Assembly: GCF_018127925.1 (NCBI RefSeq)
Contig: NZ_CP072348.1
Coordinates: 627,501-691,500, forward strand
Length of the DNA: 64,000 bases
Source of the DNA: Prevotella melaninogenica
Lineage (GTDB): Bacteria; Bacteroidota; Bacteroidia; Bacteroidales; Bacteroidaceae
Reading direction: 5' to 3'
The notes under the pieces were generated by a model. That model made no database searches and had not been told where the DNA came from. It saw nothing but the letters and a program-made list of their open reading frames with translations. Each line of letters starts with the position of its first letter. Positions within the stretch are counted from its first letter, which is position 1. A program made the position numbers and the translations under genes. Of this stretch, positions 9,469-55,307 are shown piece after piece.

Positions 9469-9684
9469 TAAACATTTACACCTTCTTTTAACCCTAATCT
9501 ATCATTAGAGCCTAAACAGATTTTGTTTTATTGTCGAGCAGATTACCTGTCTTTGTAACGCAGGCGTAGCCGGGCTACGTCAAGTTGCAAAGACAGACAA
9601 GATGCCGACAAGAAAATAAAAGATGTTAACCTGAACTCGGGCTAAGTATCATACGACTCTTCTGTTTGGTTTAGTACAACGGCT

Positions 9685-10945: not shown

Positions 10946-12814
<1,869 letters not shown>

Positions 12815-27605: not shown

Positions 27606-27662
27606 TTAGATGATGTGTTATTGCCCCGCACATGTCGTGCTAATGGTAAACACCAATGGTGC
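27606..27662. repeat. Palindrome array B, 22-bp period
   Basis: Cores GCACATGTCGTGC at 27628-27640 and ACACCAATGGTGC at 27650-27662, exactly 22 bp apart. A decayed half-unit (GATGTGT) lies in the same register at 27606-27618. Confidence 0.75.
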
Positions 27663-27773
27663 TGGGCACTAATTAAGTTGCTATATATAGCTATGAAAAA
27701 GTGTATCTTATATTATTAGGAATATGGTTTACACCCAAACAGAAAGACAAACGTATTTCATCGTGCTTTTATA

Positions 27774-32010: not shown

Positions 32011-32107
32011 AATCTGCAAACTTACACAAAATAATCGAATTATACCGCAGATATAGAAAGAAATTAAATAAATAAAAAGGATTTCCTTTATTAGGAAATC
32101 CTTCTTG

Positions 32108-32180
32108 TACACCCTTAGGGACTCGAACCCTAGACCCACTGATTAAGAGTCAGTTGCTCTACCAACTGAGCTAAGGGTGC
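32108..32180 (-). tRNA. tRNA-Lys(CTT), copy 1
   Basis: 73 nt on the minus strand. Acceptor GCACCCT/AGGGTGT (with a G-U closing pair), anticodon stem ACTGA/TCAGT with loop CTCTTAA (anticodon CTT), T-loop TTCGAGT. CCA is not encoded, as usual here. Confidence 0.93.
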
Positions 32181-32219
32181 ATGCTAAACGAAAAGACCTG
32201 GGTTAGAAATCAATTCTTG

Positions 32220-32292
32220 TACACCCTTAGGGACTCGAACCCTAGACCCACTGATTAAGAGTCAGTTGCTCTACCAACTGAGCTAAGGGTGC
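32220..32292 (-). tRNA. tRNA-Lys(CTT), copy 2
   Basis: Identical 73-nt sequence to copy 1, 39 bp upstream of it on the same strand; both share the same CTTGT-type 3' flank. A recent tandem duplication. Confidence 0.93.
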
Positions 32293-32544: not shown

Positions 32545-32747
32545 TTTAACCCAATTCGGTCATTAGAGCCTAAACATATTTTGTTTTATTATCGAACAGA
32601 TTGTTTGGCTTTGGAACGCAGGCGTAGCGGGCTACGTCAAGTTAAAAAGACGGACAAGATGCCGATAAGAAAATAAAAGATGTTAGGAAACAACACAAAA
32701 ACAAGAATTCCTGAAACATTGTGGTCTAATGACCGATTTGGGTTTAA
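32545..32747 (+). repeat. Complete foldback (MITE-like) element
   Basis: About 200 bp. Left end TTTAACCCAATTCGGTCATT is mirrored by right end AATGACCGATTTGGGTTTAA (inverted repeats of roughly 24 bp). Internally the arms continue to pair imperfectly (TTATTATCGA... with ...GCCGATAAGAAAATAAAA) around a central GTAGC/GCTAC palindrome. No coding capacity. It is the uninterrupted counterpart of the copy split by the IS982-type element. Confidence 0.85.
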
Positions 32748-34267: not shown

Positions 34268-34960
34268 CAATTTATTATCCGTATAGGAAAATTACGCTGC
34301 TAAAAATCAAATCTTTAGCTTAATAATTATAGAACTTTGTTCTCAATGGTAAAAAGCTCATCAGACTTTTCGAGTAATACTACTATAGATTTTTACGACG
34401 CAAACCCCTACTCTCTTTTAGACCTATTCGTAATAAACAAGTTTTCTTATGCTTAGTAAATCTGTACATTGTAACCGTCCGCACCATTGGTGTTCACCGC
34501 CCGCACAAGATGTGCTAACCCTCCGCACAATATGTGCTGTCCCTCTGCACCAAATCATTTCACAAACAGTAAAATACGGTTTAATAGAAGTTTGAGAAGG
34601 TATATATCAAAGAGTCGATGAATAAAAACAAACGAGTTTCTTTCCCTCTCCTTATTCTTCAATGCCCAAAGAATCTTCTATCAATGCCGCAACGATAACA
34701 ATTTTCTCGTAGAAAACGAAGTGGACGAGAAAAATCCGAACTATAAACATTGAGTTTCTTACATCTTCGTTAGGGAATCTCTTCAAAGCCGTTTTTCATC
34801 GAGGTGTTAATACCGACAACTTTCTGGTAACCAAAACCTTTCTGTAGGATAAATCGATTTTAATAGAGTGTTGTAACTATGAAAATAAAGCTTCTCAAAT
34901 AATTATAAAATGCAAGATGTACAATAAAACAAATAATCTTCAAAAAGAAATTCCGATTTC
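34268..34960. other. Long AT-rich intergenic region between divergent genes
   Basis: No gene seen. Holds palindrome array C (34481-34559) and a hairpin ATTTTCTCGT (34701-34710) / ACGAGAAAA (34725-34733) with no evident role. Confidence 0.5.
34481..34559. repeat. Palindrome array C, 22-bp period
   Basis: Units start at 34481, 34503, 34525 and 34547, each exactly 22 bp apart. Cores: GCACCATTGGTGT, GCACAAGATGTGC, GCACAATATGTGC and a decayed GCACCAAATCATT. Spacers are pyrimidine-rich (tcaccgccc, taaccctcc, tgtccctct). Confidence 0.88.
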
Positions 34961-35783: not shown

Positions 35784-35852
35784 TTTAACCCAAATCAATC
35801 ATTAGAGCCTAAACATATTTTGTTTTATTATCGAGCAGATTATTTGGCTTTG
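35784..35852 (+). repeat. Truncated left arm of the foldback element
   Basis: TTTAACCCAAATCAATCATT through GAGCAGATTATTTGGCTTTG matches the first about 70 bp of the complete element at 32545, then stops abruptly at the remnant that hosts the IS66-type element. Confidence 0.75.
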
Positions 35853-35961
35853 CATTGGATCATTTTTGATTCTTTAATCTCAAAATCTACAGCGATAGTA
35901 TTTATTGTTTTATTTTACGGTAGTTGACTTCGATTATCTCTTTGAGATTATCAGAATTTTC
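35853..35961 (-). pseudogene. Remnant sequence downstream of the HTH fragment
   Basis: If the IS66-type element is removed, this stretch joins 37552 onward on the minus strand. Just past the HTH fragment stop a short open stretch (NEENSDNLKEIIEVNYRKIK) reads through before a stop, then another possible start (MIQCK) is cut by the foldback repeat. Debris of an older mobile locus; weak evidence. Confidence 0.3.
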
Positions 35962-40028: not shown

Positions 40029-40125
40029 AACCGGGACAGTAGATATTTAGGGTCAGTCCTAAAACCCAGTTGCAAGTCTACCCTCTTAAGCACATAATTT
40101 CATAAGTATTTATTACCTTTGCATC

Positions 40126-40470
40126 ATGAAGAGTCACCAATTATTACGTTGCATCTTTCCAGATGTACTTGCCGACTACTTTGATGTGGTCGATATTCAA
40201 GAGAGTGTTTCTCAGTTTGATTTTTGGCTTGACGAGCGTAATTTTATGGAAAAGTCAGACCATAAGTTAGGCACCGTAAGCAGTTATGGTTTTACCAGCG
40301 AGCGTGTTATTCAGGACTTCCCCCTTCGTGGCAAAGCAGTTTACCTCCATGTTCGCCGTCGCAAATGGCGTGACAGTTCCAACGGAGAGATATTTACTTA
40401 TTCATATGATGATTTGACGGCTGAGGGCAGTAAACTATCCCCCGAGTTCGTTTCTTTTTTAAAAGAATAG
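40126..40470 (+). CDS. ISAon1-type transposase N-terminal region (OrfA)
   Basis: A 114-residue protein (MKSHQLLRCIFPDVLADYFD start) matching the separately encoded N-terminal region of ISAon1-type transposases, which should recognise the long inverted repeats. It ends KLSPEFVSFLKE at a TTTTTTAAAAG tract where the second frame takes over. A shift of +1 (or loss of one base by slippage) at AAA-G would fuse it to the catalytic part. Confidence 0.8.
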   Translation: MKSHQLLRCIFPDVLADYFDVVDIQESVSQFDFWLDERNFMEKSDHKLGTVSSYGFTSERVIQDFPLRGKAVYLHVRRRKWRDSSNGEIFTYSYDDLTAEGSKLSPEFVSFLKE

Positions 40471-41455
40471 AATTGAGTCCACTGCAGAGAGCATCGCAAG
40501 TATCGGTGCTCACTATGGCGTAAATGGCAAGCTGTTATCCACACAGTACAAGGAACATCTCAGTGATTATCGTAGCTGGGATCAGTTAGATCATGCTCAA
40601 GACTGGCTATTGTTTGAAGACAACATAGGAGAGAATCTAAGTATTGATGAGACCTGTCTAAGTAGTGGCGAGGTTTATACTTTTCTGACCAACAAGGCGG
40701 GAAAGGGCAGAAAAGGGACTTTGGTAGCTGTGGTTAAAGGGACCAAGGCTGAGGACGTCATCCAAATTCTCAAGACGATAAACCTTTCTAAACGGGAGAC
40801 TGTCAAAGAGATAACACTCGATTTATCATCTTCTATGATGCGTATAGCCCGCTCTGTTTTTCCCAAAGCACTTATTACCAATGACAGATTTCATGTACAG
40901 AAACTATATTATGATGCTCTGGATGACATGCGTATCGCTTACCGATGGATGGCAAGAGATAAAGAGAATGAGGAGATAAAAGAAGCTAAAAGTAAGGGAA
41001 AGGAATATATACCATTTAGATACAGCAATGGTGACACGCGTAAGCAGTTGCTCGCCAGAGCAAAGTTCATATTGACCAAGCACAAGACCAAGTGGACTGA
41101 AACACAGAAAGGTAGGGCACAAATCATCTTTGAACATTATCCGACACTGAAAAAGGCATATGACTTGGCTATGAAACTTACCGATATTTATAACATCAAG
41201 AGCATCAAGGATGCTGCAAGGCTGAAGCTGGCAAAATGGTTTAATGAGGTTGAAGAGCTGGGAGTGGACAATTTCTACACAGTGATTGACACGTTTGAAA
41301 ATCATTATCAAACCATACTCAATTTCTTTGTAAACAGAGCTACGAATGCAAATGCCGAGTCATTCAATGCTAAGGTTAAGGCATTCAGGGCACAGTTCAG
41401 AGGAGTCACAGATATTCCTTTCTTTTTATATAGGCTTATGAAATTGTGTGCTTAA
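40463..41455 (+). CDS. ISAon1-type transposase catalytic region (OrfB)
   Basis: An open frame from 40463 (just after a TAA) with sequence NRIESTAESIASIGAHYGVN, then LLFEDNIGENLSIDETCLSS (catalytic Asp), TNDRFHVQKLYYDALDDMRI (second Asp) and NANAESFNAKVKAFRAQFRG (Glu end), an ISL3-like DDE core. No good start codon exists near the frame opening (a TTG at 40610 comes late), so expression by frameshifting from OrfA at about 40460-40466 is likely. About 330 residues in frame. Confidence 0.8.
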   Translation, partial: KNRIESTAESIASIGAHYGVNGKLLSTQYKEHLSDYRSWDQLDHAQDWLLFEDNIGENLSIDETCLSSGEVYTFLTNKAGKGRKGTLVAVVKGTKAEDVIQILKTINLSKRETVKEITLDLSSSMMRIARSVFPKALITNDRFHVQKLYYDALDDMRIAYRWMARDKENEEIKEAKSKGKEYIPFRYSNGDTRKQLLARAKFILTKHKTKWTETQKGRAQIIFEHYPTLKKAYDLAMKLTDIYNIKSIKDAARLKLAKWFNEVEELGVDNFYTVIDTFENHYQTILNFFVNRATNANAESFNAKVKAFRAQFRGVTDIPFFLYRLMKLCA

Positions 41456-41562
41456 GAGGATAGGCTTGCAACTGGGTTTTAGGACTGACCCGATATTTAG
41501 TGGGGATAGGCATATTAAAAATATAATTTATAACGCTATATCACATTGATAATCAAAAGAAA

Positions 41563-50543: not shown

Positions 50544-51911
50544 TTAGGCAGCCTTCTTCACCCTCCGAGCCATCTCCCTTGCGGCAAGAATGGCAGCATT
50601 TGCTGTATGGATTCCGAAGAAGAGTAGTAGCCTCTCGCTAAACATATTGCGTGCCTTGATGCGTCCAAGGCTATAGTGTTGCTTTTGATTTCCAAAGCTA
50701 CCCTCCATTACCGTAGCTCTGAGGTTTCCAATAATCTTTCTCGCTGTCTTGAGACATTCAGCTTCTTCTTTGGGTCTTGGACCTTTTCTAGTGAAACAGG
50801 TCGTTATGCCTTTTTCTGTACACATAGTGCGGTTGGCATTGTTGGCGTATATGGAATCGGCACCGACACGCTTGACTTTGATTCCCGTCAAAGATTCTTG
50901 ATATTCTATACATTGCTTAAGACGGATACCCTCGTTGAATGCCTCAAAGCTGTGGTGCTCTATGAATGATATGCCGTCTATCTGTATGTTGTTGACCTTT
51001 GCCCCAAACTCTACACGCTTGTTTTCCTTGCCTCTGACAATAGGACGGAGGTAGGGGCGGTCGATGCTGACGATACGGTGCTTGACTTCCTTGCCGGAGA
51101 ATAGTTCTGACTGTTGGAGGCATACCTCACGCACAGCGGACAGCCGCTTTTCTTGTTCTGCCGACAGACAGATGCAAGGACTGTACTGTTTACGCAGACG
51201 ATTCCATTGGGACAGGAGTTTGGACAGGAGCCTCAGGAGTCTTCTCCTGAGCTTGCGCGTGGACGAGGCTGTGTGCTTGCGCTGCTTAGCGTATGCAAGC
51301 CTGGCCTTGTCAATATTATTATACTTGCTTCTCGGAATACGCTCTGAGAGGTGTTTACACTCGGAGACCAGCAGAGTGTGAAGCCAATAACAACACTCCC
51401 AGAGCAGCTTGATATCCGTAGGAAAACGCAGGTAGCTCTCGTAACAGGTTGCATCCGTCAAGCACAGGTCTTTGTCTTTAAGGTTGTCTTTCCATTTGGC
51501 ATACAATATGCCCTGAAAGCTGTCTATGTCAAGAAACTGACCAAGACGATTGCGTATGGCACTTACAATCTTTCCATCCTTGATGGGACAGGAGGGGTCT
51601 ATCAGAACACCACAGAACATCTGCATGTGGATGCTTCCGTTAAGCATTTCTATCAGACCATCGTCAGACAGACCTGTGTATGACTTAAGGAACATTAGGG
51701 CTATTTCTCCTTCACCCGAGAAAAGAGGCTTTTTGCCTCGCTTGCTCTTATGGCTAAGGTTCGTATACTCTGCTGCCAACTCCTTTAGTGGGAGCTGGGA
51801 ATGAATGCGTCCAAGTTCGCTTTGTGCAAAGCTTTCACGATAGCTCTGTAAAAAATCGAACTCTGTAAAGGGCAAAGTTGGTGTTATATCAGAAATTTTT
51901 TGTATCTTCAC
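50544..51911 (-). CDS. IS5/IS1182-type DDE transposase
   Basis: A 455-residue transposase. N-terminal DUF772-type region (KSKRGKKPLFSGEGEIALMF, LSDDGLIEMLNGSIHMQMFC), catalytic DLCLTDATCYES (Asp), a basic helical middle, then VKRVGADSIYANNANR (second Asp) and AECLKTARKIIGNLRATVMEGSFGNQK region (Glu), with C-terminal IHTANAAILAAREMARR. Frame intact. Terminal repeats were not found, so element borders are unknown. A strong hairpin lies just upstream of the ATG. Confidence 0.85.
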   Translation of the reverse strand: MKIQKISDITPTLPFTEFDFLQSYRESFAQSELGRIHSQLPLKELAAEYTNLSHKSKRGKKPLFSGEGEIALMFLKSYTGLSDDGLIEMLNGSIHMQMFCGVLIDPSCPIKDGKIVSAIRNRLGQFLDIDSFQGILYAKWKDNLKDKDLCLTDATCYESYLRFPTDIKLLWECCYWLHTLLVSECKHLSERIPRSKYNNIDKARLAYAKQRKHTASSTRKLRRRLLRLLSKLLSQWNRLRKQYSPCICLSAEQEKRLSAVREVCLQQSELFSGKEVKHRIVSIDRPYLRPIVRGKENKRVEFGAKVNNIQIDGISFIEHHSFEAFNEGIRLKQCIEYQESLTGIKVKRVGADSIYANNANRTMCTEKGITTCFTRKGPRPKEEAECLKTARKIIGNLRATVMEGSFGNQKQHYSLGRIKARNMFSERLLLFFGIHTANAAILAAREMARRVKKAA

Positions 51912-51931
51912 GACGATTTATTTTAAGTTTT

Positions 51932-51965
51932 CCCCCGATTCTGCCCGTGATGGGTCGTTCGGGGG
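51932..51965. promoter_or_regulatory. Hairpin upstream of the transposase start
   Basis: CCCCCGA (51932-51938) pairs with TCGGGGG (51959-51965) with an inner CCC/GGG pairing. It sits 20 bp before the transposase ATG and could block read-through translation of the transposase. Confidence 0.5.
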
Positions 51966-52093
51966 ATTTTATGTAAAGGTACAAATAATATATTATGCTG
52001 ACAAACAATTAGTTAGAAAAATTCTGAATATCCCTAATTATGTAAACATTTTTGCGAGCAATTGATAACCTTTTGCAGGCTAATTTATACTCA

Positions 52094-52150
52094 GCACCAT
52101 GGGTGCTTACCATCAGCACAACACGTGCTGAGCATTAGCACAATATGTGC
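52094..52150. repeat. Palindrome array D, 22-bp period
   Basis: Units start at 52094, 52116 and 52138, exactly 22 bp apart. Cores GCACCATGGGTGC, GCACAACACGTGC, GCACAATATGTGC; spacers ttaccatca and tgagcatta. Confidence 0.88.
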
Positions 52151-52279
52151 TAAATAGTGATACATCAAGAAAAGAAGAGAGAAAAAGGGCATTATAATCA
52201 TCGTATAATAAGAGATTAATGACCAACTGAAATAAAAAGCGGTATTATATCTCACCCCATTAAAACCTATAATCAGCAA
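52151..52279. other. Non-coding stretch between array D and the nuo terminator
   Basis: AT-rich; no gene or motif seen. Confidence 0.4.
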
Positions 52280-52320
52280 AAATCGCCCAAGGATTTATTG
52301 AAACCCTTGGGCGATTTATA
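52277..52320 (-). terminator. nuo operon terminator
   Basis: A 13-bp perfect stem AAATCGCCCAAGG (52280-52292) with CCTTGGGCGATTT (52305-52317), followed by TTTTTGC on the minus strand. Confidence 0.88.
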
Positions 52321-52346
52321 TATTTATTTAATAAGTATGTAGCCTA

Positions 52347-53783
52347 TTAAACTGCTGCTGCAATCCACTCATATACAAAGCTGCAAACACCGAAGAGGAG
52401 GATACCTGCCATGCAGATAGCCAAAGCAAACTTAGTGTTACAGTCACTCTTGAAGGTTGGCAATGGATTGTCTGTGCGAACAATATACATAGCCTTTACA
52501 ATCTTAAGATAGTAGTAGAGTGAGATAACAGTGTTGAGTAATGCGATGAATACAACTCCGTAAGCCCATGCTCCCATTGTGGTGTTGATGTCAGCACCAT
52601 TAACGCCTGACATGAAGATGAAGAACTTTGAGAACATACCTGCAAACGGAGGAATACCACCGAGTGAGAACATTGCTAAGGTCATCAGGAAGCTCAGACG
52701 TGGGTTGGTCTGATAGAAACCGTTGTAATCATCAATATTCGTCTTACCACCATTATTCTGTTCTACAACAGAGATAATAGTGAAGACTGCCATGTTAGCA
52801 ACAACATAAATCAAAACGTAGTAACTAAGTGCAGCAACTGAATCTGCCCAATTATTACCAATAGCTGCCAACATAATATAACCTGCCTGAGAGATTGAAC
52901 TGAAAGCCATGAAACGCTTCAACTCATTCTGACGTACAGCAAAGAGGTTGGCAATAGTAATTGAAAGAACAACTATAATCATCAGCAATACGTGCCAGTA
53001 TTCCATCATGTCACCGAAGACATGGAAGAGAATGCTCAACAATGTGAAGGCTGCAGCACCCTTTGAGATTACGCTTAAATAACCAGTAACAGTTGTTGGT
53101 GCACCTTGATAGGTATCAGCTGTCCAAAAGTGGAATGGAACAAGAGAAATCTTGAAGCCAAGACCACTGAAGAAGAACACAAGACCCATGATTACCAATG
53201 GGGTTGCCTGCATCTTTGTAGCGATATCAGCGAAGTAAAGAGTACCAAACTGACCATAGAGGAAGCTGATACCATAGAGCATTACACCGCTTGAGAAGGT
53301 TGCTGTCAATATGAACTTAGCTGCACCTTCTGCAGAGTTCTTACGATACATATCGAAGGCAACAGTACATGCCAAAGGTACAGATGCCATTTCAAGACCG
53401 AGGAAGAACATCAGGAAGTTGCCTGAGCTCATCATGGTAAACATACCGAGCAATGTTGAAACGATAAGCATATAGAACTCTGCTTCTTTACCGCTCTTTG
53501 CAGCCCAAACACGGCTCTGAACGACAACAATAAAGATACCCATAGAGAGGATAGCCTTCATCACATCAACAGCAGGTGTTGTTTCATACATACCACCGAA
53601 CAGACTCTGTGTGCCCATAGGATAAAGACACACGAAGGTGTTCAAAAGCAAGAGTACAGAAGCCAGCGGATTGAACCACTTGCGTTCTTCAGTCTTTGCC
53701 GTTGCAAAGTCAGCAACGAACAAAACAATCAGGATAGCAATGAGACTTGCCTCCGGAATCATCTTAAAGAAATCACTATACAT
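52347..53783 (-). CDS. nuoN: NADH-quinone oxidoreductase subunit N
   Basis: A 478-residue antiporter-like membrane subunit with about 14 helices. Conserved PLACTVAFDMYRKNS, VPFHFWTADTYQGAPTTVTG and LKRFMAFSSISQAGY segments carry the proton-channel lysines and glutamate. Last gene of the operon; 12 bp after nuoM and followed by the terminator. Confidence 0.94.
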   Translation of the reverse strand: MYSDFFKMIPEASLIAILIVLFVADFATAKTEERKWFNPLASVLLLLNTFVCLYPMGTQSLFGGMYETTPAVDVMKAILSMGIFIVVVQSRVWAAKSGKEAEFYMLIVSTLLGMFTMMSSGNFLMFFLGLEMASVPLACTVAFDMYRKNSAEGAAKFILTATFSSGVMLYGISFLYGQFGTLYFADIATKMQATPLVIMGLVFFFSGLGFKISLVPFHFWTADTYQGAPTTVTGYLSVISKGAAAFTLLSILFHVFGDMMEYWHVLLMIIVVLSITIANLFAVRQNELKRFMAFSSISQAGYIMLAAIGNNWADSVAALSYYVLIYVVANMAVFTIISVVEQNNGGKTNIDDYNGFYQTNPRLSFLMTLAMFSLGGIPPFAGMFSKFFIFMSGVNGADINTTMGAWAYGVVFIALLNTVISLYYYLKIVKAMYIVRTDNPLPTFKSDCNTKFALAICMAGILLFGVCSFVYEWIAAAV

Positions 53784-53795
53784 TTCGCCAGTTTA

Positions 53796-55307
53796 TTAAA
53801 GATTACCCAAATTTGGTATATATGTGAAGATGTGATCAAAGATAGGATGAACTGCGTCCATAATCATATTCTCAAAGAAGAGTGGGCAGAGACCTAAACC
53901 TGCAACGCAGAAGATTAGACAGCCGATAGCGAATCGCTCGTCCCATGTAGCATCATGTAACTCATAGAACTTCTTATTTGGAATTTTCTGGAAGAGAATC
54001 TTTCCTACCACACGTAAGATGTAAACAGCAGTGATTACAATTGCTGTACAAGCAATGATTGTTGCTACACGATGGAATGTACCTGCATTCTCAAATGAAC
54101 CTATGAAGATTGTCATCTCAGCAACGAAGCCTGAGAAACCTGGCAAACCAAGGTTAGCAAGACCTGCTACTACATAAGATACAGCCAAGAATGGGATAAC
54201 CTTCATAAGACCACCAAGGTAACGAACATCACGTGTTCCTGCACGGTGATAAATCATACCGATACATGCAAAGAACAAGGCTGTCATCAAACCGTGTGAA
54301 AGCATTTGGAGAATAGCACCTGTGATAGCAGTCTGTGTGGTCATAACCAAAGCAAAGAGTACCATACCACAGTGTGAAACTGAAGAATAAGCATTGATAT
54401 ACTTCAAGTCAGTCTGTACACAAGCTGAAAGTGCACCATATACTACAGAGATTGTTGTCAACACAAGGAATACTGGTGCCCACATCTCCAATGCATCAGG
54501 CATAAGGAACATTGCAATACGCAAACAACCGTAGCCACCAAGTTTCATCAATACACCAGCGTGGAGCATTGATACTGCTGTAGGCGCTGAAGCGTGACCG
54601 TCAGGAGACCATGTGTGGAATGGGAACAAAGCACCGAGTACACCAAAACCAATAAACACCAATGGGAAGAAGATATTCTGAATGTTCTTAGGCATAGCAT
54701 GCATACGTGCTAACTCCATTACATCCATTGTGGTAGCACCACTAAAGTAGTAGATACCAAGGATGCCGAGTACCAAGAGAGCAGAACCACCCATCAACAT
54801 CAAGGTAAGCTTCATTGCTGAATACTCCTTAGGACCAGTACCCCATACACCGATGAGGAGGTACATTGGAATCAGCGCAACCTCATAGAACATGAACATG
54901 GTGAACATATCCGTAGAGATAAAGAAGCCAAATACACCTGAAGACAAGAGTACAAACCAAAGGAAGTATTCTTTCTTCATTGGTTCAAGCTGCCAGCTGG
55001 CAAAAGTACCTGTGAAAACAATGATTGCAGAAAGCAAAATCATTACAACAGAGATACCATCTACACCTACCGAGAAGGCAATATTTAGAGGCTTGAACCA
55101 CATTACGGAGTTTGTCAACAGCATCGCATCATGATTACCTGCGTTGCGCTGCTGAACGAAATAAACAGTCAGCCAAATTGCACCTATCAAAAGTGCCGTA
55201 GAGCCGGCTACCATCACACCGCGTACCTGATTATCATTCTTCGCTACCCAAAGAGCGAAAAGCATCAGGACGGGGATAATTACAAATACAGTTAATATCC
55301 AACTCAT
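53796..55307 (-). CDS. nuoM: NADH-quinone oxidoreductase subunit M
   Basis: A 503-residue antiporter-like proton-pumping subunit. FMFYEVALIPMYLLIGVWG carries the conserved Glu, and FPFHTWSPDGHASAPTAVSM, LKYINAYSSVSHCGMV and GLPGFSGFVAEM are family motifs. Length matches E. coli NuoM (509). 4-bp gap to nuoL. Confidence 0.95.
   Translation of the reverse strand: MSWILTVFVIIPVLMLFALWVAKNDNQVRGVMVAGSTALLIGAIWLTVYFVQQRNAGNHDAMLLTNSVMWFKPLNIAFSVGVDGISVVMILLSAIIVFTGTFASWQLEPMKKEYFLWFVLLSSGVFGFFISTDMFTMFMFYEVALIPMYLLIGVWGTGPKEYSAMKLTLMLMGGSALLVLGILGIYYFSGATTMDVMELARMHAMPKNIQNIFFPLVFIGFGVLGALFPFHTWSPDGHASAPTAVSMLHAGVLMKLGGYGCLRIAMFLMPDALEMWAPVFLVLTTISVVYGALSACVQTDLKYINAYSSVSHCGMVLFALVMTTQTAITGAILQMLSHGLMTALFFACIGMIYHRAGTRDVRYLGGLMKVIPFLAVSYVVAGLANLGLPGFSGFVAEMTIFIGSFENAGTFHRVATIIACTAIVITAVYILRVVGKILFQKIPNKKFYELHDATWDERFAIGCLIFCVAGLGLCPLFFENMIMDAVHPIFDHIFTYIPNLGNL

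What the first reader, a model, noticed from the sequence alone, without database searches (positions are those of the whole stretch)
34481..34559. Intergenic arrays of a 13-bp palindrome with an exact 22-bp period, in four places
Seen directly: 13-bp cores of the form GCAC-N5-GTGC (such as GCACCAATGGTGC and GCACAATATGTGC) recur at exactly 22-bp spacing: 34481/34503/34525/34547; 12643/12665/12687/12709; 27628/27650; 52094/52116/52138. Nine-base spacers vary while the spacing never does, which suggests selection on helical phase (about two turns per unit) or replication-slippage descent from one repeat. All four arrays are intergenic. They have no T-tracts, so they are poor terminators. The outer units decay. 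Possible roles: binding array for a dimeric DNA-binding protein (nucleoid or segregation protein), replication or condensation site, or a selfish short repeat. Identity is unknown to me.
Basis: seen in the sequence. Interest (0 to 1): 0.75.

Follow-up and report, generated by a model that had tools for sequence, protein, structure and literature searches.

The report
Phased palindrome arrays between Prevotella genes
Short DNA elements made of about three mirror-image motifs spaced exactly 22 base pairs apart lie between genes in these bacteria, and they sit in step with a faint 11-base rhythm in the surrounding DNA, which suggests that they are docking sites for a protein that bends or wraps the chromosome.

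Summary
The arrays are real and far beyond chance. They belong to a dispersed family of roughly 75 or more elements in this Prevotella genome, typically three GCAC-N5-GTGC cores at exactly 22 bp with a decayed GTGT/ACAC half-site at each end. All 50 listed of 73 perfect neighbouring pairs are 22 bp apart, though gaps of 0-30 bp were allowed. In a close relative, 17 of 17 alignable gaps still hold the array, and half-sites changed less than loops and spacers. Nothing supports RNA hairpins, a REP transposase (RAYT) or local slippage.

Unexpectedly, the chromosome carries a kilobase-coherent A+T rhythm of about 11.015 bp, and the arrays are in register with it: 50 of 50 arrays tested in this genome, 46 of 47 and 22 of 23 in two relatives (half expected). 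The lock reaches about 1 kb, coding DNA included. A 203-bp dispersed repeat, gene ends and random intergenic sites are not in register, but 19 terminator-like hairpins are, so register is not unique to arrays.

Best reading: DNA-level wrapping or bending sites for a nucleoid protein or gyrase, functionally like E. coli BIME-2. The protein is unknown.

The parts
12643..12721 (.). Array 1: four units at 22 bp (core 1 perfect, outer units decayed), between an esterase gene (minus) and a thioredoxin-fold gene (plus)
   Evidence: model match 12633-12708, E 1e-16; Pfam
27628..27662 (.). Array 2: two units at 22 bp, between a ferritin-like gene and an aminotransferase class IV gene
   Evidence: model match 27612-27672; Pfam; array also in the same gap of G146, G132 and G310
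34481..34559 (.). Array 3: three good units plus a decayed fourth, between a ThrE-type exporter gene (minus) and a 266-aa ORF without Pfam match (plus)
   Evidence: model match 34471-34544; Pfam; same gap occupied in G146, G132, G310 and, by a weak match (E 1e-4), G378
52094..52150 (.). Array 4: three perfect units, beyond the terminator-like hairpin of nuoN (Proton_antipo_M), next to a transposase gene
   Evidence: model match 52083-52158, 62 bits; array in the same gap in G310, not in G132 and G146
52279..52317 (-). Intrinsic-terminator-like hairpin of nuoN, between the gene and array 4; present in G132 and G146 (no array) and in G310 (array)

Best explanation
Each array is a DNA-level element of about 83-108 bp: normally three 22-bp units, so eight inward/outward half-sites (GTGC/GCAC) at 11-bp steps on average, often flanked by an A-rich tract on the outward strand. 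I think it is a docking or wrapping site for an abundant DNA-bending protein, either a nucleoid-associated protein or DNA gyrase, that contacts the same face of the helix every 11 bp. The element lies mostly between genes, outside a terminator where one was examined (nuoN), in rotational register with the weaker 11-bp pattern that runs through much of the chromosome. Unit number changes by whole units (22 bp, two turns), because anything else would throw the half-sites and the two flanks out of register. Shown: architecture, exact spacing, small fixed size, retention in orthologous gaps, lower change in half-sites than in loops and spacers, register with the chromosomal pattern. Inferred: that a protein binds, that it bends or wraps, and that the role is supercoil or nucleoid management.
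For: 73 perfect pairs, the 50 listed all at 22 bp, control 0. Narrow size: of 55 array sites held, 36 have three units, 11 two, 5 one, 2 four, 1 six (most loci were picked for a perfect pair). Flanks share only short matches (10 of 20-45 bp). G132, gaps found by flank: 17 of 17 spanning alignments keep an array; substitutions 9/372 in half-sites, 31/234 in N5, 24/263 in spacers, 433/6769 in other intergenic DNA. Register: flank A+T phase 165-188 degrees from array dyads in G000 and 176-191 in G146, to 1.1 kb beyond the largest null value; arrays within 90 degrees of 180: 50/50 G000, 46/47 G146, 22/23 G132, 9/10 G310, 4/4 G378; coding-only flanks also locked (amplitude 0.019, 0 of 2000 randomisations). 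Not locked: 27 copies of a 203-bp repeat, 201 starts, 201 stops, 123 random intergenic sites. No RNA covariation: 0 compensatory pairs, Watson-Crick flank pairing at or below expectation. Array outside the terminator-like hairpin at nuoN.
Against: No protein or binding data. Nineteen terminator-like hairpins in the same loci are also in register (17 of 19, p 0.0005), so register is not proof of a special array function. The 11-bp pattern is unchanged when 3 kb around arrays is masked, so arrays do not create it; it is hardly stronger at arrays than at random places (median 1.92 against 1.77 in G000; flank autocorrelation 0.0069 against 0.0036 in gaps without arrays). P. multiformis (G124) has about 24 array matches (48 strand-matches) but no long-range pattern in 60 kb, and G003 and G075 show it in a few blocks with few or no array matches. 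Half-site conservation is biased by choosing perfect arrays in G000, by up to about twofold, which could remove the contrast with plain intergenic DNA. Within the array the A+T phase is opposite to that of the flanks, which a simple 'same signal, stronger' model does not predict. The lock beyond 1.1 kb is within the null range.
Confidence: 0.5

Rival explanations
1. A selfish, non-autonomous mobile element of about 85-108 bp, copied by an unknown enzyme that inserts only on one face of helically ordered DNA, or purged when out of register. It has no function for the host.
For: Some arrays are near copies of each other at different loci (94% at variable positions, L136 and L166), and one pair (L138, L142) is alike for about 30 bp outside the array too; copy number differs greatly between related species; a TIR-like TTTAACA...TGTTAAA end is visible in one G011 copy (L178).
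Against: No empty site or target duplication found: 17 of 17 alignable G132 arrays are occupied in G000; half-sites changed less than N5 and spacers; no Y1 transposase in G000, G132, G146 or G310; array 3, the only one searched, has no match in 50,697 phage or 72,556 plasmid records at E 1e-5.
Confidence: 0.25
2. Operator array for a conventional dimeric regulator or a segregation protein (ParB/MatP-like), with 22 bp simply placing dimers on one face.
For: Palindromic half-sites changed less than loops and spacers; dyads every 11 bp.
Against: Gene context is varied (27 tandem, 13 convergent, 8 divergent, 2 inside called ORFs, of 50); no significant clustering of the 46 listed arrays of G146 chromosome C1; does not explain register with coding sequence on either side.
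Confidence: 0.12
3. Minisatellite made by local replication slippage and tolerated in intergenic DNA.
For: Whole-unit (22-bp) differences between species; Prevotella relatives carry other short palindromic tandem arrays, some with near-identical units (G026).
Against: N5 no more alike within arrays than between (0.375 against 0.373); small narrow size; register with flanks.
Confidence: 0.08
4. RNA-level hairpins: terminators, attenuators or mRNA stabilisers.
For: Each core can form a 4-5 bp hairpin (seen in the sequence).
Against: No compensatory pairs in 36 arrays; flank pairing at or below random expectation, inner core pair near expectation (55/144 against 48.0); the terminator-like hairpin lies elsewhere at nuoN; no Rfam family at the arrays (one search found three tRNAs only).
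Confidence: 0.03

Closest known systems
E. coli REP/BIME-2 elements bound by gyrase
   Same: Dispersed, intergenic, palindromic, regularly spaced units; gyrase cleavage sites are overrepresented in BIME-2 (PMC6379681, passages)
   Different: No RAYT in this genome; half-sites alternate about every 11 bp at a fixed 22-bp period; register with a chromosomal lattice; gyrase binding untested
Chromosomal 10-11 bp A-tract periodicity ('structural code')
   Same: Period (11.015 bp here; 11.07 reported for E. coli), presence in coding and intergenic DNA, kilobase extent (PMC7537859 passages; PMC3940949 and PMC4132750 passages)
   Different: The passages seen report no discrete sequence element in register with it; here a repeat family is
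Neisseria dRS3/NIME repeats (recalled, no call)
   Same: Short conserved palindromes arrayed in intergenic regions
   Different: Other motif and variable spacing; recalled as phage or IS targets; array 3 has no phage or plasmid match here
BrickBuilt MITE minisatellite of Porphyromonas gingivalis
   Same: About 22-23-nt tandem units in intergenic DNA of an oral Bacteroidales (PMC4596501 passages)
   Different: Unit AGAYCATARTATCCTCTCRTRTG is unrelated by eye; sits in a MITE with IS5-type ends; one BrickBuilt copy has 18 full repeats

Membership tests
REP/BIME with RAYT | High-copy intergenic palindromes | tested here: met
   264 cores, 73 perfect pairs, 155 strand-matches (about 75 arrays or more)
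REP/BIME with RAYT | Y1 (RAYT) transposase in the genome | tested here: not met
   PF01797: no match in G000, G132, G146, G310; 5 of 22 genomes searched match, among them G011, which has the diverged arrays
REP/BIME with RAYT | GTAG or CGTC terminal tag | tested here: not met
   No such conserved tetranucleotide in the 36-array alignment
Gyrase strong site (BIME-2-like) | Gyrase binding or cleavage in vivo | not testable with these tools
   -
Gyrase strong site (BIME-2-like) | Phased G/C variation of about 10-11 bp over about 130 bp | tested here: inconclusive
   Phased at 11 bp around arrays, but the pattern is chromosome-wide
MITE | Terminal inverted repeats | tested here: inconclusive
   GTGT/ACAC plus A-rich ends in G000; clearer TTTAACA ends in one G011 copy
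MITE | Target duplication or empty site | tested here: inconclusive
   No empty site among 17 alignable gaps
CRISPR | Constant repeats of 24 bp or more with unique spacers of similar length (24-48 bp repeats per PMC3733652 passage) | tested here: not met
   Unit 22 bp in all, spacer 9 bp with a consensus; cas genes not searched
Structured RNA | Compensatory base-pair changes | tested here: not met
   0 of 11 pairs
BrickBuilt | Shared 23-nt unit | tested here: not met
   Published unit unrelated by eye

The most novel reading that the evidence does not exclude
The arrays are rotational-register elements. A bacterial chromosome is held by a DNA-wrapping protein in one fixed rotational setting over kilobases, written into coding and non-coding sequence as an 11.015-bp A+T lattice. 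These palindrome arrays are its dedicated high-affinity anchor sites, kept in step by permitting only 22-bp changes; other Prevotellaceae use the same 22-bp architecture with a diverged half-site (TGCAC..GTGCA, perhaps ATACA..TGTAT).
Probability: 0.25. Interest if true: 0.88.

Novelty: new variant of a known kind. Interest (0 to 1): 0.72.

Why it matters
The role of the 10-11 bp rhythm in bacterial DNA is an open question (passages). Here a discrete, countable repeat family is in step with that rhythm over about a kilobase, even across genes. That gives a handle: find what binds the arrays and one may have found what reads, or writes, the rhythm. It would bear on how bacterial chromosomes are wound and where supercoils are handled between transcription units.

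Tried and rejected
RNA structure: rejected. RAYT-driven REP: rejected. Part of a larger dispersed element: flanks share only short matches; an excess of about 187 bp to the right-hand gene seen had no counterpart in flank sequence and was dropped. Origin/terminus clustering: dnaA lies on C1 at 465 kb, density looks uneven, but the only test made (46 listed arrays of G146 C1) gave p 0.25; skew from scattered loci was too noisy. Indels in multiples of 11 outside arrays: 29 intergenic indels of 6 bp or more, 6 multiples of 11 against 2.6 expected, but 3 of the 6 are the array unit losses; no claim. HU-type proteins: counted, no link made to arrays. Rfam, phage and plasmid searches: no match at the arrays (with array 3 only). 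Papers: library searches listed no paper that I could see to describe these arrays or a repeat in register with the rhythm; I saw listings and, for eight papers, passages only, no whole paper.

Full report
OBSERVATION. The window lies at C2:627501-691500 of a 3,360,806-bp genome in two contigs. A relative given as same genus, G124, has a contig of 1,368,087 bp, equal to Prevotella multiformis NZ_GL872282.1, so the genus is Prevotella. G146 has a contig of 1,796,408 bp, which I recall as P. melaninogenica ATCC 25845. The four arrays are at the stated coordinates; 7 of the 13 stated cores are perfect. The window has 7 perfect cores against 0.45 expected, the genome 264 against 24 for the reversed control. 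Allowing 0-30 bp between perfect cores gives 73 pairs, control 0, and all 50 forward pairs listed are exactly 22 bp apart.

ANATOMY. In 41 held sequences of G000 (40 of them taken around known cores) there are 55 array sites: 36 with three units, 11 with two, 5 with one, 2 with four and 1 with six. Outside the good units the next half-site is most often GTGT or ACAC, and then the motif ends. The spacer has a consensus near TRAKSMTYM, so there is a dyad in each core and each spacer, every 11 bp. Many ends carry an A-rich tract on the outward strand: 28 WAAARR matches start at +19 to +21 over 100 ends. Flanks of 400 bp share only short matches (10 of 20-45 bp at E 0.01); one pair of near-copy arrays, L138 and L142, is alike for about 30 bp outside as well. 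Of 50 arrays with two or more units, 27 lie between tandem genes, 13 between convergent, 8 between divergent, and 2 fall inside called ORFs. At nuoN a terminator-like hairpin lies between gene and array and is present in G132 and G146, which lack the array there.

NOT RNA. The 36-array alignment gives 11 predicted pairs, none with a compensatory change, and a covariation term of +0.11. Complementarity of the flanks is at or below permuted expectation (for example 29 of 94 against 47.8 for spacer ends); the inner core pair is near it (55 of 144 against 48.0, p 0.11).

NOT LOCAL SLIPPAGE, NOT RAYT. Loops are as different within an array as between arrays (identity 0.375 against 0.373, p 0.46), while spacers share orientation within an array (0.643 against 0.515, 0 of 1000 permutations). 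Differences of exactly one 22-bp unit occur (two arrays against G132, one of them also against G146). PF01797 is absent from G000, G132, G146 and G310; 5 of 22 genomes searched have it, G011 among them.

CONSERVATION. For G132 most of the sequence was taken as one contiguous stretch of 380 kb, chosen because it should match an array-rich part of G000 but not by any array of G132. Eighteen of 50 G000 arrays had any match there, 17 had a spanning alignment, and all 17 show an array; in reverse, 17 of 26 G132 clusters had a spanning alignment to held G000 sequence and all 17 are occupied. Nine clusters had none and are uninformative, one of them probably a coding false positive. Substitutions: half-sites 9/372, N5 31/234, spacers 24/263, other intergenic 433/6769 (Fisher p 3e-7, 2e-4, 8e-4). 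Because arrays were chosen for perfect cores in G000 the half-site rate could be up to about twice as high; the contrast with N5 would stand, that with plain intergenic DNA might not. An earlier comparison with G146 (7/360) is biased on both sides and is not used. In G310 (89% at nuoN) arrays stand in the same gap for arrays 2, 3 and 4 of the window; no match was found near the three arrays of L172, where gene order is partly broken. G132 and G146 lack array 4.

DISTRIBUTION. Model R1 (sequence only, 36 arrays) gives these matches at E 0.01, both strands counted and first-look candidates capped at 150: G000 155, G132 162, G146 155, G310 152, G378 106, G124 48, G011 27, G026 13, G003 8, G311 2, none in the other 10 of 20 genomes. 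Of 100 genus genomes (G000 included), only G000 and G011 hold a perfect pair. Other Prevotellaceae and Bacteroidales records, such as Segatella buccae, RUG11392, UBA3294 and G011, have the same 22-bp architecture with half-site TGCAC/GTGCA. G026 has 22-bp arrays of ATACA..TGTAT; G010 has CTAG arrays and G163 GTC-N-GAC arrays on a 9-bp step.

THE ELEVEN-BP REGISTER. Flanks nevertheless have A+T content phased at about 11 bp relative to the array. For three-unit arrays the A+T phase is 2 degrees inside the array and 174 to 192 degrees in all six flank windows out to 200 bp. In 50 G000 arrays the amplitude falls from 0.085 (54-150 bp) to 0.044, 0.026, 0.019 (600-1100 bp) and 0.011 (1100-1700 bp), with phase 165-188 degrees, against a jitter null with mean 0.013 to 0.005; it exceeds the largest of 300 null values to 1100 bp and not beyond. 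G146 (47 arrays) behaves alike; G132 (23 arrays) exceeds the null to 300 bp and is borderline at 300-600. One by one, with flanks of 44-400 bp, arrays fall within 90 degrees of 180 in 50/50 (G000), 46/47 (G146) and 22/23 (G132), and within 45 degrees in 42, 36 and 19. Of 10 G310 arrays put in, 9 do (one by a single degree), and 4 of 4 in G378; further held G310 arrays (L215, L220, L224, L228, L277-L279, L386, L404) were not put in. The species share orthologous arrays, so these are not independent samples. After codon-position correction, flanks of 54-1000 bp give 48/50, non-coding flanks alone 49/50, coding flanks alone (54-1500 bp) 39/50 with amplitude 0.0192 and 0 of 2000 randomisations as high.

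CONTROLS. Not in register: 27 copies of a 203-bp dispersed repeat (p 0.37 to 0.95 over six tests; arrays cut to n = 27 give 0.037, lower 5% 0.030), 201 starts, 201 stops, 123 random intergenic points (p 0.27, 54 within 90 degrees), 8 isolated single cores (too few to judge). Weakly so: 569 A-tracts in gaps without arrays (A+T amplitude 0.032 at 26-81 bp, 0.006 and 0.012 further out, against 0.114, 0.052 and 0.055 for arrays). In register: 19 terminator-like hairpins of the same loci (amplitude 0.026, phase 164, p 0.0005, 17/19). So the register is a property of some intergenic palindromes, not of arrays alone. Their T-tract may be part of the pattern, but I could not test this further (script cap reached).

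THE PATTERN ITSELF. In 380 kb of G132 the A+T autocorrelation has a component of period about 11.015 bp: 35e-4 at lags 195-393, 26e-4 at 393-789, 15e-4 at 789-1581, 5e-4 at 1581-2901, against about 1-3e-4 at distant periods. Masking 3 kb around all 26 array clusters changes it little. Seventy-one percent of 76 five-kb blocks exceed 2 sd in G132, 75% of 20 in G310, all 20 in G378 (where it is about six times stronger), 15% and 20% of 20 in G003 and G075, half of 12 in the window. Pooled, G003 and G075 reach 27e-4 and 58e-4 at lags 195-393, from few blocks. G124 shows none in 60 kb although it has arrays; G026 loses it by 400 bp; G163 and G010 show a weak form without R1 arrays. It is slightly stronger in flanks within array gaps than in gaps without arrays (0.0069 against 0.0036) but hardly so at arrays against random places (1.92 against 1.77). 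Arrays therefore fit into the pattern but do not make it, and across species the two go together only roughly. An 11.07-bp periodicity, with local regions reaching at least a kilobase, is reported for E. coli (PMC7537859, passages), so the pattern is of a known kind. The ten library searches made listed no paper that I could see to report a repeat family in register with it.

MECHANISM. The simplest reading is a protein that touches one face of the helix every turn: base-specific at GTGC/GCAC in the array, weakly through A/T-rich steps in the rest. Eight half-sites over about 83 bp, between genes, would suit a wrapping or bending protein; gyrase, whose E. coli motif is about 130 bp with phased G/C content and whose cleavage sites are overrepresented in BIME-2 (PMC6379681, passages), and HU-type proteins are candidates. 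That a protein binds, and which, is inference.

STATUS. Family membership fails for RAYT-REP, CRISPR, structured RNA and BrickBuilt, and is undecided for MITE. 'Works like a BIME-2 or nucleoid-protein site' is the working hypothesis at about even odds.

Noticed in passing
window 32545-32747, also partly 9487-9628 and 35784-35870: A dispersed repeat of about 203 bp with TTTAACCC...GGGTTTAA-like ends and dozens of matches in G132, G146 and G310; it is not in register with the 11-bp pattern.
   Followed up: partly
G000 whole genome: 39 matches to the HU family (PF00216) in this genome against 7 in each of the close relatives G132, G146 and G310; 28 of them are low-scoring matches in open frames of 150-160 aa.
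   Followed up: no
G378:C54:100001-200000 (L436-L440): The 11-bp A+T rhythm is exceptionally strong here (autocorrelation about 0.02 at lags of 200-400 bp, still 0.006 at 1.6-2.9 kb), above 2 sd in all 20 five-kb blocks.
   Followed up: partly
L364, L365, L369 (G026); L380, L381 (G010); L372, L373 (G163): Other intergenic-looking palindromic tandem arrays with different motifs: ATACACGTNTGTAT at 22 bp, CTAG at 9 bp, GTCNGAC at 9 bp.
   Followed up: partly
window 40045-41496: ISL3-family transposase gene (40610-41455) inside 69-bp inverted arms 88% complementary: an IS element.
   Followed up: no
window 50544-51911: Transposase (DDE_Tnp_1_2) next to array 4; the first 542 bases of the query 51500-54500 occur identically on C1 at 709728.
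   Followed up: no
L178 (G011), about 1480-1560: A diverged array whose ends form a perfect inverted repeat TTTAACAATTGTGCA...TGCACAATTGTTAAA, transposon-like.
   Followed up: no
window 32107-32292: Two tandem tRNA-Lys(ctt) genes, in a direct repeat 94% identical over 90 nt.
   Followed up: no
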